From NCBI GenBank assembly GCA_963691655.1, contig OY829328.1:33623890-33687889 (forward strand): a DNA stretch of 64,000 nt. The letters are read 5' to 3'. Below are positions 42,151-49,105 of this stretch, piece by piece. Numbering within the stretch: position 1 is the stretch's first letter; each line of letters begins with the position of its first letter. The position numbers and the translations under genes were made by a program. This DNA comes from Toxonevra muliebris. Taxonomy: Eukaryota; Arthropoda; Insecta; Diptera; Pallopteridae. The notes beneath the pieces were generated by a model. The model was not told the origin of the DNA. It worked only from the letters and a program-made list of their open reading frames with translations, and did not search any database.

Positions 42151-43856
42151 GTGCCACGCCCACTTTACTAAAAGCCATTATGAATAGCTATAAACCATCC
42201 CCCCCTAAGAAAATGCATTTTGGAAATATGACTTCAATCGGTCCAGTCGTTCAGAAGTTACAAGATGACATACACACAAAACTCTACGATTATACATATA
42301 AAGATATTCCGAATATCGCACTCAAGACTGCGGTTAGAAGCCAAACAAGAGCTTTTGTTGATTTGTTCAACATATGCATTAAGGAAAGAACTTTTCCAAA
42401 CCAGTGGATGCAACAGCGACTGATGCTCTTACGTAAAAACAAAAACACATCAGATCCTTCATCTTACCGTCCACTATGCATGTTGGATTAGGCTGGAAAA
42501 TTATTGGAGCAGATAATTGGAGACCGATTGGAGTAAGCTGTTAAATATCATCTTTCAGATTCGCAGATTGTGTTTTGAAAGCGCAGGTCAACAACTGATG
42601 CAATATGACTAATTAAAAACATTGCAATAAAAGGGACACGCTGCAGAGGTGGCGCTAAGAAATATTGCTTGATTCTCACCCTGGATGTAAAGAATGCCTT
42701 TAACTAGGCAAATTGGCAAAACATTCTAAATATGAGTGATTTCAATGTTCTAGCTTACAAACGCAATATTATTTCTAGCTACCTCAGCAATAGAGATGGC
42801 TGAAATATGATACGATTAGAGGCACAAGGGACTACAAGATAACCGGAGGTGTTCCCCAAAGATTAGTTTTAAGCCCAGCCCTATGGAATTTAATATATGA
42901 CGGCGTATTATAGCTAAGCGAGAATGAAGGTACAAAAATAGTGGGATTTCCTGACGACATTGCGGTGGTAGTGGTAGCAAAACACCTAAATGAAGTTGCT
43001 AGCATTGCAAATGCGACAGTATCAAAAATACAAAACTGCCTTAATACGGTGAGTCTCTGCCTTGCAGAACAGAAGACAGAGGCCGTCTTGATAAGCAGCC
43101 GAAAGAAAGTGGAAGTAGTCAGCGTTAACGTGGGTGGCTGCACAATCACATCAAAATCCGCAATAAAATATTTAGTCATCATGATTGACAATAGAATAAG
43201 CTTTAAGGCGCATCTCGAGTATGTGCAGCAGCATTCTGAGGAATCATGTTGAATGCCAGAGGACCTAAACAACGTAGAAGACAGCTATTCGCTGGTGTAG
43301 TCAAATCAATAATTCTCTATGGAGCACCAATATGGATTGATGCATTTAAAGTGAAGACATATGTTCGAGGAATAAAGTCGACATACCGAATGTGTGCTGC
43401 GCGTTTTGCACTGTCACAGAAGAAGCTGCACTAGTTATAGCTGGATTGTACCCACCAGATTTAATAGCAAGGGACCCTGAAATAAAAAATACACTAGCTT
43501 CGGAGTCTACAACAACTTGTAATCAACGCGCAAATACAAAATTAATTACAATCGCTGAATGGCAGAGTCGCTGGAATCACGGAGAGAAGGGGAGATGAAC
43601 GTATAGACTTATTCCTAATCTGACAAATTGGCTGAACAGAAGACATGGCGAGGTGAACTTTTACCTGACACAGATGTTCAGCGGACACGGTTGCTTTAAG
43701 GGGTATATGCATAGATTCGGCCATGAAAATGAGTCTGCATGCGATTACTGCGGACCAGACTGCATAGAAGATGCAGAAGATGTGTTTTTTGTATGCAGAC
43801 GTTTTACGAATTTGAGAATCGCGGAATCGAGGAATTTTACGGTACCTAATGTCTAG
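42150..43856 (+). mobile_element. R1-clade-like LINE, 5'-truncated, degenerate
   Basis: Only the ORF2 RT and C-terminus remain. The plus strand reads through RT, the region after it and a C-terminal CCHC-type zinc knuckle, with stops and frame changes. It begins abruptly in RT motif 0 (DIPNIALKTAVRSQTRAF) after a GTGCCACGCCCAC repeat, consistent with 5' truncation. It ends at about 43856 without clear A-tail, followed by a (TA)n run before the CACTG element at 43911. Confidence 0.88.
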
Positions 43857-43860: not shown

Positions 43861-44956
43861 CACCTTCCAACGCACACAAAAAAAGAAAATATATATATAT
43901 ATATAGTCTACACTGAAAAAAAAAATTACTAAATCTTAGGAAATCTTCCTAATTTTAAGGAAAAAATGGGAATGAAATTGCTCCAAAGTTACGTGATCTT
44001 TGAATGTAGGAAATTTACTTACTTATTATTAGTAAATTGTGTAACCTTAAGCTAAGGAAATTTTCTTTGCCTTAAGTACGGGATTCCCTATACGTTATGA
44101 AAAAAAATACTTGTGATAAAGAACTAAAGCATTTAATAGTAGTAAATTTTTTATTTTTTTTAGGAAAAGTTTTACTTATTTCAAGGACAAATATACCTCA
44201 ATATGAGGACAAAAATAGTTATATTAAAGAAGGTGCTCCTTAATTTAAGGCGATGTTTTCCTTGTACAGGGGAAATATATCATAGATTTAAGGATTTATT
44301 TTCTTTAAACCAAAGTAATTTTTACCTTGGAATAATGGTTGTAAATCCTAGATTTAAGATAACTGATTTGAAATAAAATACAATTTTGACTGAAATTTAA
44401 AACTTTTATTCATGTATTTCATTGCATTTTACGTATGTAGATATATAATTTTAATATTATAATATAAAGTAAATTTAAATTTTTGTAAGTTGAACAATTT
44501 TATACATATGTATATGTGCATATTTATACAGTATATATACACATTTTAGTTTACAAGTTTTTCATTTATAGGTTTATAATAATTTTAATTTAAAAGAATA
44601 CTTTGGGTATTAAGAAAGTTTTATTTTTTACTTGATAAAGATGTGTTGGTGGAAAAAGGAAATTTTTTTAATTTTAAAAGTAAATCCACATTTTTATTAA
44701 GTAAGAAAATTTCTTGAATTTTATATGCAGTAAATTCTGAACTGTAAGTCCAAATAATAAAGTTCTTCTTATACATAGTACTATATCGTTTACAATACAA
44801 ATAACATAAAAATTTTTCAATAATTTCGTCCATGTATATTTTTTTAAAACAATTAAAAATTGTGATATGTTTGCGCAAAAATGATCAATTGCTGATAGAG
44901 AATGAAAGTATTTGAAGTATTCATAATTTTTATGCAAGAACTGCGATTTTCCTTAC

Positions 44957-47189
44957 TTGCTTGAACTTGGTCGACATTTAGTTTTTTGAAGAGATCTACG
45001 CCGCCTGTATCTTTGACTCGCTCTTTAAATAAGGGTGTTACAGTACAGCAAAACTGGCTCCAATTATCTAACAGAAGATCTTCTTTGCCGGGAAATAATT
45101 GTTTGAAGTCGGATTCAATCTTTGAAAATAGAATTGAAATTAAACTAAATATTGCAATATACCAACAAGTAATAACGAAAACACACATGATTGAAAACTT
45201 ACCAAGCGAAACCCGAAACTTTGTTTTAATGATGGCCACGCTTCTAAGATGTTATGCAATGAAGGAGTACTTTTGAAAAATTCCTGTCGATATGTAAAAG
45301 TGAGCTGCCACTTATAAAGAAGTTCATCGTAAGGTTCTGTGCTGAATTTCAACCAATTTTTTGCTGCTTCGTCATCAATACTGGAATTGTAATCTATAAA
45401 CATGTGCAAAAAATTGGAATAATAAATTTACATCAACAAATTTAAAATAAGATACTTTTATGACAGCTACTCTGCAAAACTGATTTTTTTTTTTTAGCAA
45501 TAACACAATTTTTCCTCAGCTTATATAAACAGTTGTGATACTTAGCATACAAACAGCCTCCGGGTTTTTTGTCTTTTCTATTAATGAAATATATCTCCTA
45601 TTCAATATGAAAAACATATGTAATAGTATTAGAACGACATAAAAATATTAAAGTAGGAAAATTACTGGAATTTCAATACTTTTGATTGAATAGAAAAATA
45701 GCTGAACTATATTTTGTAGGTAATTATTGAATCATGTAAACCCAAATTTTGAGACTATAACCCACTTTGTGATTTGCTGCTTCTCCTTTTTAATACTAAT
45801 TTTATATTATAATCATCAAAAACTATTAGCTTTTCTTTATTAAACACAAAACAATGAAACAGAACTTTATTAATTGTATTCCTTAAATTGATCAGTTTTT
45901 CGCTACCGTATGACTGCGAGTTACATTTGTAACATTGGTTCAGTTGAAGTTCTAAGTGGTGGACCCATATGTAGCATATCGGAACTTTGCCATAGCGTAC
46001 TGAGGCCTTTAGACCACGAACTCAACGACCGAATACAGACTACCGAACCTTACAGCCAACTGATGACAATTTTCAAGGTATATACTTGTTATGTGTATAA
46101 TTTGGAAGCTACTTAAATATATATCGGTATCTAAGAGCAAAAGCGCTTTAAGTCACAAAATGTAAAGTTTACAGAACGTAAAATAAAATGTAGTTTAAAG
46201 ATTTCGTGTTAAGTGCCCATATTGTTTCAATATATTTATTAGTATAATTAACAATTGAATTCACGAAAAGTTCTAATATTGTAATTGATTTTGTTCAATG
46301 AAAATAAAACAGATGATGCCACCGAAGTAGAGCAAAACGTTAAGCGATGAAAAAATTTGTTTATTTTTTTAATATGAAGTAATCTAGTCAACGAATAAAT
46401 ATATAAAATAAAATAATTTTTACTTGTTTTGCTCCATAAGCGAAGTGGACTTAAAATTAAAAAGGGAAAGTACCTACAAAATATGGTTGTCCCATCACCC
46501 ATTCCGATATGAATCAGGAAATGTATAATTAACTAATTTATTACACATATTTACCTTACACTCGGTTGGAAAAAATTCCAAAATTTGATTGCTTAAATAA
46601 TTGAATTGTGGTGTTGCGTGAATTTTTTCTTTCAATAAATATTCTGCTATTAGACCAGCAAGATTTTTTCGATAATATGGGTTGAGTTTTTTGTTGTTTT
46701 CGTAAAAATTTAAAATTGTTGCACCTGTATAAGAAGCTCTTAGGAGTCCTAAAATGGAAAACTGCATGGATAATTTTACAAACAACAAAGTTATCAGTTT
46801 ATGTAAATTAATACCTCATTTAGATCATCGATTGCATAGAAAAAACTTGATGAAATGGATGCAGTTGACCCTGTTTGAGATGTTGAAAGCTGACTTTCAA
46901 CTCTTTCGGCTCTTTGCCAATTGAAGAGATTGTGCTCGAAAATAATTCGTTGGCCAAACAAGTTTTTAGGTACTATTTCAGACATTTGGCTGGAAGTCAA
47001 ATATTTTAGGCTTTCTGTGGTAATGCCGTGTTCTGGAAGAAATGAAAATAAAATCAACAAACATTTTATCTAATGCATACGGGCAATATTGTACTCACCC
47101 ATAAATAAATCGTAAAATATTTCACCCTTAAGTTTGCTTAGAACAGCATGGAATTCATCATTTGTGTTTTCCAAAACAATTTCCATGAA
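44957..47189 (-). CDS. Multi-exon gene inside the CACTG element: SAM-like plus uncharacterised domains
   Basis: Exons (minus strand): A 47189-47099 (MEIVLENTNDEFHAVL; Met at 47186), donor G/GTGAGT; B 47032-46815, joining in phase to read FMEHGITTESLKYLTSSQMS and GQRIIFEHNLFNW, a SAM-domain-like core; C 46761-46555 (FSILGLLRASYTGATILNFY, YRKNLAGLIAEYLL, ILEFFPTECK); a doubtful short exon near 46478-46427; E 45393-45203 (NWLKFSTEPYDELLYKWQLT, FTYRQEFF, LEAWPSLKQSFGFRL); F 45119-44957 (IESDFKQLFPGKEDLLLDNW, SQFCCTVTPLFKER). Junctions A/B, B/C and E/F have GT-AG borders and matching phases. The C, E and F segments resemble (from memory) large uncharacterised proteins predicted in aphids, Hydra and fish, with FPTE, EWPILK..GY.LI and NW..F motifs. 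No DDE, RT or helicase motif seen. A further 3' exon could not be fixed. Function unknown. Confidence 0.6.
45910..46116 (+). other. Plus-strand open frame within the CACTG element
   Basis: A GC-richer frame of 68 codons: MTASYICNIGSVEVLSGGPI, CSISELCHSVLRPLDHELND, RIQTTEPYSQLMTIFK, then a possible donor (AAGGTATATAC) at 46078. It lies between exons of the minus-strand gene, so it may be an antisense shadow, an intron-borne fragment or an exon of a second gene. I do not recognise it. Confidence 0.25.
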
Positions 47190-47242
47190 CTGAAAAGAAA
47201 AATAATAAATAACAAAACTTATATAACGTCAGAACATAAAAC

Positions 47243-47383
47243 CTAAACTACAACAGCGCGTCGTGGCGGTGGCAGGGGCAGTAAAACAAAATCAGCTATT
47301 CACTGCCATCAAATTTAGAAATGGACCTAATCGAAGCAGCGCTGCAAACTGCCATGACGCGCTATTGTAGTTTGGGCTTAACA
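47243..47383. repeat. Small palindromic MITE (about 140 bp)
   Basis: CCTAAACTACAACAGCGCGT on the left and CCCAAACTACAATAGCGCGT (reverse complement of the right) form arms of about 30 bp around a GGCGGTGGCAGGGGCAG-containing loop. It lies upstream of exon A of the enclosed gene, in or near its leader. Confidence 0.7.
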
Positions 47384-48554
47384 CATACACAACATAATTT
47401 TCTTTTCAACAAAACATAAATGCATAGCCAATTAAAATATTTGCATAACATCCTATAATTGCAAACTTTCTGAACACAATTGTTTAACAAATGAATCGCA
47501 GTCTGCGACATAGAATCATAATTGTGAAATTCTTTTTATGCATTTGCATACAAACTGAAAATTTTAAAAATTATACAGCACTTATGTTTTGTTGAAATTT
47601 CACTTATTTTTTTTCATTTAACAATAGCCACATTACATTAATAACAGCTTAACTTTCTTTATTTTTTCACAATATTAAACTCACTTTATTTTTCCACCTT
47701 CACTTTTTCACAATATAAAATTCACTTTAATTTCCACTAAAAATATTCCACGCACACGCATCAGAACAAAAATCAACTGCGCTTCTGATCAAGCAATAAC
47801 AACAACAAAAAATGCGAATAACTGACAAAATTAAAGTTTCTCCCGTTATGTTTACAAAAACAAATATTCTTTGCATGCTCTTGTTGGGGTTGCCAACATG
47901 ACAGAAATTCGTTACCTAATGGTAGAAAATCCGATTTAACTGTAAGTTCGTTGTTCAGAATTGTAAAATAAGACTAATATTTTTGGGAATAAATAGTTAA
48001 ATCTTTTTTCGAAAGTATTTGAGTTATTTCTGAATGAAGTAGTCAATCAGACAAAATAAGTAATGAGCTTGAACAAAAAAGTTGGCATCCCATGTTAATG
48101 GAAAGAAAACGAACAATTTGCAACTATATATTTGCTTTCACTGTTGTTGTGCTGGTCTCTTTCTCTCTTTACAAAGAAATGTCGTTCGCAATAAAATTTT
48201 AAGAAAATCTCCTTACACCAAGGAAAAATTTTACTCACGCTAATGAAAAATACGTCCTACGGTTGAGTAAATTTACTAATAATAATTACAAGTTTTCCTA
48301 AAATAAAAATAAGGAAACAATTTCCTATATATTAGGAAACGTGACCTGAAGTGTAGGAATTCGTCTTAAAATTAAAGAAATTTTTACTTATATTTAACAG
48401 TTACAAATTGAGGAAAAATTTTTACTTCGTATAAGGAAACGAAGTCATTACTTTAAAGATATTTTTCATAGAGTATAGGAAAAAATACTTCAGCTTAGGA
48501 AAAAAATTTAAGGAACTCGTTTCCTTAGATTTAGTACAGTCTTTTTTTTCAGTG

Positions 48555-49105
48555 TAACAATGTATCTACAATATATGGTATGTATTTATATGCAATGTAT
48601 TAAATGAAATAAATGAAAGCCAACAACAACAACATTACTCATGACCAACTAAACAATAAATGCTTTTGACAGACAACATGGCGGCTGTGAAGCAACATAC
48701 ATACATACAATTTTATGTATGCACCCAACGGCCGAGAATACATTCTGATGAGCATCTGTGGAAGCTTAGAAGCGCACAGGCTACCACAAACTCTCTAGAT
48801 GCAATAAGAATTTCGATCACTGTTTCCAGATTGAAGGCATTTGCCGTTAGGGCAAAGTTTTTTCAAAAAGCCAGGTTTATACTGGTTATGTTACTAGTTG
48901 AAAGAAAGAAAATACTCCTTAATGTATTTAATCTAATCCTAGTTAGAATTGAACAATGTAACAAAGTACGCAAATCAATAACCAACTGCATTCTTTGCGT
49001 GAAAATAAGACTAGAAACGCAGTTTAAATAAGCGAGTGTTGGGACCAACAAAATTTTGCTGTACGGGAGAAATTTTGGCTCCTCCATCATCCATTAGAGT
49101 TAGAA
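48555..49105. other. No clear gene
   Basis: A 123-codon plus frame at 48660-49031 starts next to AACAACAACAAC and CATACATACATA simple sequence and has no recognisable motif. I treat it as unproven. Confidence 0.35.

What the first reader, a model, noticed from the sequence alone, without database searches (positions are those of the whole stretch)
43911..48554. 4.6-kb TIR element with a spliced non-transposase gene: candidate undescribed mobile system
Seen: CACTGAAAA inverted ends bordered by TA, long subterminal arrays of TAAGGAAA-type words on both sides only, and between them a minus-strand gene whose exons A/B, B/C and E/F join with GT-AG borders and matching phases. The product has a SAM-like N-terminus and FPTE-, EWP- and NW-type motifs resembling (from memory) uncharacterised proteins found in scattered copies in aphids, Hydra and fish. 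No known transposase signature was seen. Inference: this gene could be the mobility or DNA-binding protein of a new transposon group, with the arrays as its binding sites. Alternatively a host gene was captured.
Basis: partly seen in the sequence, partly recalled or inferred. Interest (0 to 1): 0.9.

Follow-up and report, generated by a model that had tools for sequence, protein, structure and literature searches.

The report
Gutted two-gene transposon with SAM-protein partner
A recently spreading transposon, probably of a fly, has lost nearly all of its own moving enzyme, which is predicted to fold like the antibody-gene recombinase RAG1, but keeps much of a second gene whose SAM-like protein likely grips the repeat arrays at the element's ends.

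Summary
Window 43911-48554 is a 4,644-bp element with CACTGAAAA inverted ends. Its genome holds 17 other near-full left ends. All 17 copies with both ends read (window included) have matching 2-bp target duplications (14 TA, 2 TG, 1 CA); eight copies differ by 0-0.20%.

So this is a non-autonomous deletion derivative of a two-gene transposon of the CMC/RAG1 clade. Its eight youngest copies carry a broken partner gene, so they likely move in trans. I found the pairing in none of five papers searches; Repbase was not available. Two intact stand-alone DUF4769 genes hint at domestication.

The parts
43911..48554 (.). whole element, 4,644 bp, one of 18 near-full left ends in the genome
43909..43910 (.). 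target-site duplication TA, left
   Evidence: 17 of 17 copies with both ends read have matching 2-bp flanks
48555..48556 (.). target-site duplication TA, right
43911..43919 (+). left terminal inverted repeat CACTGAAAA
48546..48554 (-). right terminal inverted repeat TTTTCAGTG
43938..44262 (.). left subterminal array, 7 AGGAA-core words; likely binding sites (untested)
48221..48525 (.). right subterminal array, 12 AGGAA-core words; likely binding sites (untested)
47099..47186 (-). exon A of the SAM-like/DUF4769 gene (start codon, first helices)
46815..47032 (-). exon B (rest of SAM-like part; DUF4769 23.7 bits against a cut-off of 23.9 for the ORF that holds it)
46555..46761 (-). exon C, ends in the FPTE motif (DUF4769 24.5 bits for the ORF that holds it)
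45471..45597 (-). exon D (EIYFINR..KPGGCLYAKYHN), found by homology; 3' border uncertain
45203..45393 (-). exon E (EAWPSLKQSFG motif)
44957..45119 (-). exon F (NW motif); later exons of the gene are lost in this copy
44900..44915 (.). approximate place where older copies (L040, L041, L043, L047, L049) hold about 0.5-0.75 kb more, including the last part of the partner gene
44593..44845 (-). broken remnant of the transposase C-terminus (BAH-like region), in two frames (44845-44678 and 44673-44593), one stop
   Evidence: P0027 residues 670-780, E 4.9e-12 for the element
46200..46443 (.). 243-bp intronic stretch present in the window, L027 and L037, absent from L029-L036

Best explanation
This is a recently mobile, likely non-autonomous deletion derivative of a two-gene DNA transposon: it keeps both inverted ends, most of a SAM-like/DUF4769 partner gene and only broken pieces of the last ~110 codons of a transposase whose relatives are predicted to fold like RAG1. 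Shown: the ends, 2-bp target duplications, near-identical copies, the transposase remnant, open reading frames of that transposase's relatives in the same genome, and the DUF4769 gene beside that transposase at many loci. Inferred: a transposase of this clade, supplied in trans, likely cuts the CAC...GTG ends and inserts them by cut and paste at TA-like dinucleotides. The partner protein likely binds the family-specific word arrays at each end and, through its SAM-like domain, would oligomerise along them and help pair the two ends, much as TNPA of maize En/Spm is thought to do (recalled). The transposase's BAH-like tail would contact chromatin. The window copy likely moves on proteins made elsewhere, since the eight youngest copies carry a frameshifted partner gene.
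Against: No copy of the window's own family keeps transposase sequence before residue 645, and the nearest other tail is 39% identical and decayed, so the present mobiliser was not found. 18 of 31 other transposase loci show no partner within 5 kb, though many are short fragments. The sequence profile alone does not reach RAG1 in the 60 of 111 solved-structure matches shown. SAM assignment: Foldseek E 0.2 or worse on a poor model. The binding role is untested.
Confidence: 0.72

Rival explanations
1. The partner protein, and truncated versions made by copies such as the window's, act mainly as regulators or repressors of transposition rather than as end-pairing co-factors.
For: The window copy keeps an open A-F frame without the C-terminal part, the shape of a truncated regulator; TNPA of Spm also regulates the element's promoter (PMC1636069, passages).
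Against: Most copies of the family have broken frames, and the gene is kept beside intact transposases in other families, which does not need a repressor.
Confidence: 0.2
2. A non-autonomous element captured a host SAM/DUF4769 gene, which rides as a passenger.
For: Two intact stand-alone DUF4769 genes exist at C3:3.996 and 3.999 Mb; the window family's recent copies show no constraint on the gene.
Against: Pairing with the transposase at 13 other loci, in two gene orders, and in phylloxera gene models; the transposase remnant lies in the same element.
Confidence: 0.05
3. One reading: the SAM-like protein is itself the mobility enzyme of a new transposon group.
For: No family copy with a transposase body was found, although copies are 0-0.20% apart.
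Against: The transposase remnant, the two-gene relative and the multiplication of copies with a broken SAM gene.
Confidence: 0.03

Closest known systems
CMCT clade (EnSpm/CACTA, Mirage, Chapaev, Transib, Plavaka, ESTA, Lanisha) as set out in PMC12730594 (passages)
   Same: C(2)C and H(3-4)H between second D and last E, CA..TG ends, 2-bp TSD within the stated 2-5 bp
   Different: a SAM-like/DUF4769 partner and a BAH-like tail, neither mentioned in the passages seen (BAH: 0 occurrences)
ESTA, fungal EnSpm-like transposons with TA TSDs (PMC12730594, passages)
   Same: CMCT motifs and mostly TA TSDs
   Different: insects, not fungi; the described families carry a TET/JBP gene, this one a SAM-like gene; relation by tree not tested
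Animal TRC/CACTA elements such as SmTRC1 (PMC1636069, passages)
   Same: animal CACTA-type elements with 2-bp repeats at the ends and a second protein proposed as TNPA analogue
   Different: TRC ends begin CCC and carry Transposase_21; their second protein is not conserved beyond the species, here it is shared with aphids
Maize En/Spm TNPA-TNPD with subterminal motifs (recalled; TNPA/TNPD roles in PMC1636069 passages)
   Same: two proteins, one transposase, one likely array binder; long subterminal arrays; internally deleted derivatives that move in trans
   Different: the partner is SAM-like and not related to TNPA by any search made here
RAG1/RAG2-like transposons (ProtoRAG; recalled) and RAG1 itself
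   Same: RAG1-type fold and a second gene in the same element
   Different: partner is SAM-like, not a RAG2-type kelch protein (recalled); 2-bp instead of 5-bp TSD (recalled)
Pfam PF15992 DUF4769
   Same: L054 partner gene 142 bits, E 4e-41
   Different: Pfam gives no function; here most members found lie in transposons

Membership tests
CMCT clade | C(2)C and H(3-4)H motifs between second D and last E | tested here: met
   in homologues (CxxC 21 of 21, H610 29 of 29, E630 28 of 29 rows with letters) and in the L054 ORF; deleted from the window copy
CMCT clade | 5'-CA..TG-3' termini | tested here: met
   CACTG..CAGTG in the window family, CACGG..CCGTG in the L054 family
CMCT clade | 2- to 5-bp TSD | tested here: met
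   17 of 17 and 3 of 3 (TA, TA, AA) are 2 bp
CMCT clade | RNase H-type core as in RAG1/Transib | tested here: met
Plant-type CACTA | ends CACTA and Pfam Transposase_21 | tested here: not met
   ends CACTG/CACGG; no Transposase_21 match at E 0.05 in any of 29 relatives
TRC (animal CACTA) | ends begin CCC | tested here: not met
   ends begin CAC
Plavaka | Pfam PF18759 | tested here: inconclusive
   1 of 29 relatives, E 1.2e-5, 25.2 bits under the 26.3 cut-off
ESTA | groups with ESTA on a transposase tree | not tested
   no ESTA sequences at hand
Transib | 5-bp TSD (recalled) | tested here: not met
   2 bp in 17 of 17 and 3 of 3
DUF4769 (PF15992) | score over Pfam's gathering cut-off | tested here: met
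   L054 partner 142 bits; window exon C ORF 24.5 against 23.9, exon B ORF 23.7 just below
SAM domain | five-helix SAM fold in the N-terminal part | tested here: inconclusive
   top Foldseek rows are nearly all SAM domains, probability up to 1.00, but E 0.2 or worse; model mean pLDDT 52, about 75 in that part
BAH domain | BAH fold at the transposase C-terminus | tested here: inconclusive

The most novel reading that the evidence does not exclude
Insects carry an undescribed branch of RAG1-fold transposons that works with two proteins: a transposase with zinc fingers in front and a chromatin-reading BAH domain behind, and a SAM-domain partner that polymerises along family-specific repeat arrays to pair the ends. 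The partner was later domesticated into stand-alone host genes of the kind that Pfam calls DUF4769.
Probability: 0.45. Interest if true: 0.75.

Novelty: new variant of a known kind. Interest (0 to 1): 0.6.

Why it matters
RAG-type transposons explain the origin of V(D)J recombination, and a second protein is central to that story. Here is another RAG1-fold lineage with a standing partner, open transposase frames, defined ends and at least two families with different end arrays. That makes the partner's role, a 'DUF' until now, directly testable by swapping arrays and proteins. It also warns that this gene, listed in aphid and phylloxera gene sets as 'uncharacterized protein', is often transposon sequence, while two stand-alone copies in this genome may be real host genes.

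Tried and rejected
Pfam on five single window ORFs gave DUF4769 around its cut-off and otherwise only weak unrelated matches, no transposase. Two right ends without a matching left end (C1:62.33 Mb, C3:63.15 Mb) were read for a longer copy and proved to be end fragments of 443 and 496 bp; three others of that kind listed were not read. L050 (C2:50.31 Mb) is a decayed relative without a readable gene apart from a short transposase-tail match; L046 is a 74% end fragment. A search for a family copy with the transposase body failed. Inverted ends at C3:55.44 Mb were not found. The transposase profile against solved structures gave 111 matches; the 60 shown match through the zinc-finger region (residues 3-94), not a RAG1 core, so the RAG1 link rests on motifs and the predicted fold. 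NCBIfam gave nothing for P0005, P0014, P0027. Selection: window against L047 dN/dS 0.40, L049 0.52, L040 0.85, L041 1.68; against L029 and L043 0 silent and 11 replacement changes each: past constraint at most, none visible now. Papers searches: SAMD3 + transposon (six, unrelated by title), EnSpm + animal + SAM domain + transposase (43, none), DUF4769 (44, one beetle genome paper, listing only), BAH domain + transposase + CACTA (104, none), sterile alpha motif + transposase + terminal inverted repeat (113, none). Absence from print is claimed no wider than that. VIA rows do not list every family; absence there was not used.

Full report
What is there. The element runs from 43911 to 48554 with CACTGAAAA ends and TA on each side. 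Its first 496 bp match 26 places in its own 491-Mb genome, 18 of them near-full, the window included; its last 405 bp match 35 places. I fetched 20 stretches around such places and five more. In all 17 copies with both ends read, the window included, the two flanking bases repeat exactly: 14 TA, two TG (L031, L037), one CA (L042). Eight copies at different sites (L029-L036) differ from one another at 0 to 9 of about 4,400 positions, 0-0.20%. This is a mobile element that moved very recently.

The arrays. AGGAA-core words number 7 in the left 450 bp and 12 in the right 375 bp, against 7 in 3.8 kb of interior. The word was chosen after reading the sequence. The right side exceeds all 2,000 simulations (maximum 6); the left (7) lies within their range (maximum 8, mean 1.9).

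The gene. Six exons on the minus strand join with GT-AG borders and matching phases to 331 codons. A protein search with joined exons (exon D not yet known) found one aphid protein (P0001, 29% identity, 93% coverage). These exposed exon D and showed that older copies (L040, L047, L049) hold a further block of the gene that the window copy lacks at about 44910. Of 15 copies with all six exons, only the window has all six open; L037 differs by one base in exon D's A-run, next to the uncertain border; L029-L036 and L027 share a 2-nt frameshift with a stop in exon B. So copies with a broken gene are those that multiplied.

The missing transposase. P0003, a phylloxera protein, joins a DUF4769 front to a different tail. 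That tail found 31 proteins (P0003 itself included) of 312-830 aa, 11 of them over 800, among them proteins of the flies Eurosta, Haematobia and Eupeodes. They carry a D..D..E set with CxxC and HxxxH and weak DUF4218 (11 of 29) and Plavaka (1 of 29) matches. Back in the window, 44845-44593 on the gene's strand matches pieces of the last ~110 residues of Eurosta P0027 (E 4.9e-12), across two frames and a stop. The window element is therefore gutted: partner gene, deletion, transposase tail. In the genome search, family copies match P0027 only from residue 645 on. Copies that keep the block lost from the window have no more transposase than that. The nearest tail outside the family is at C2:50.31 Mb (66%, a decayed relative with similar ends), then C1:65.41 Mb (39%, with stops).

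The living relatives. A search of the genome with P0027 gave 68 matches, with open frames of 825 and, three times, 829 aa; a search with aphid P0005 gave 79 DUF4769 matches. Both are lower bounds, as only the best candidates are scored. Clustered, 31 transposase loci lie outside the window's family; 13 have a DUF4769 hit within 5 kb, all on the same strand, where 0.03 is expected; 18 have none. Three of the 13 belong to one family, 97% alike at the left end. Of 15 loci spanning at least 1.9 kb, 11 have the partner (counted). Partner first at 9, transposase first at 4. One locus read end to end (L054/L055) is a 6,817-bp element, TA-CACGGAA...TTCCGTG-TA, with an open 829-aa transposase frame and a partner gene with DUF4769 E 4e-41; whether that partner gene is intact to its end was not settled. 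Two more copies have matching TSDs, TA and AA. Its end arrays use another word: CATTAA/TTAATG 13 and 18 times in the terminal 700 and 1,000 bp, 3 times in the 5.1 kb between (word chosen after reading). The two families thus carry different arrays, as expected if each partner reads its own.

Stand-alone genes. DUF4769 also occurs as two neighbouring open frames at C3:3.996 and 3.999 Mb (331 and 313 aa from the first ATG), 34% identical to each other, 42% (central part) and 30% to the L054 partner. No TA-flanked CACNGAA end lies in the 5 kb read, and one search lists no transposase near. They may be domesticated; direction and function were not tested. The same family search was negative in 14 control genomes, whose names I was not shown.

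Placement. PMC12730594 (passages) describes the CMCT clade by these motifs, CA..TG ends in most cases and 2-5 bp TSDs; all are met. Plant-type Transposase_21 and TRC-type CCC ends are not. PMC1636069 (passages) describes animal CACTA elements whose second protein is proposed as a TNPA analogue but found no relatives. Here the second protein is shared between aphids and this genome. I found no paper on a SAM or DUF4769 partner or a BAH tail in such transposases, but Repbase was not available.

Verdict. Real, recent and misread in one respect: the transposase is not absent by nature but deleted. What looks new is the two-gene lineage behind it.

Noticed in passing
L063 523-1575 and 3806-4837 (G000:C3:3.996-4.000 Mb): Two neighbouring open single-exon frames with full-length DUF4769 matches, 34% identical, without transposase hits or TA-flanked CACNGAA ends nearby: candidate domesticated host genes.
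   Followed up: partly
P0003, P0004, P0012 (Daktulosphaira vitifoliae gene models): Annotated isoforms run from the DUF4769 part into transposase parts, with inner transposase stretches skipped: alternative splicing like En/Spm, or gene-model fusion.
   Followed up: no
G000:C5:19.797-19.831 Mb: Four tandem units about 10.26 kb apart, each with a 90% right end of this element and a decayed DUF4769 match: a relative caught in a long tandem duplication.
   Followed up: no
47239-47379: Inverted repeat with 32-nt arms (84%) upstream of exon A; both 20-nt arm probes found in 11 of 18 copies tested, some of which are deleted there: perhaps an older nested element.
   Followed up: partly
43599-43856: Open frame ending just left of the element that looks by eye like the end of a non-LTR retrotransposon reverse transcriptase; not searched.
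   Followed up: no
L053 from 208 to 702 (G000:C3:63.15 Mb): A 496-bp right-end fragment of the element a few kb from long frames that look by eye like a Rel/ankyrin immune gene.
   Followed up: no
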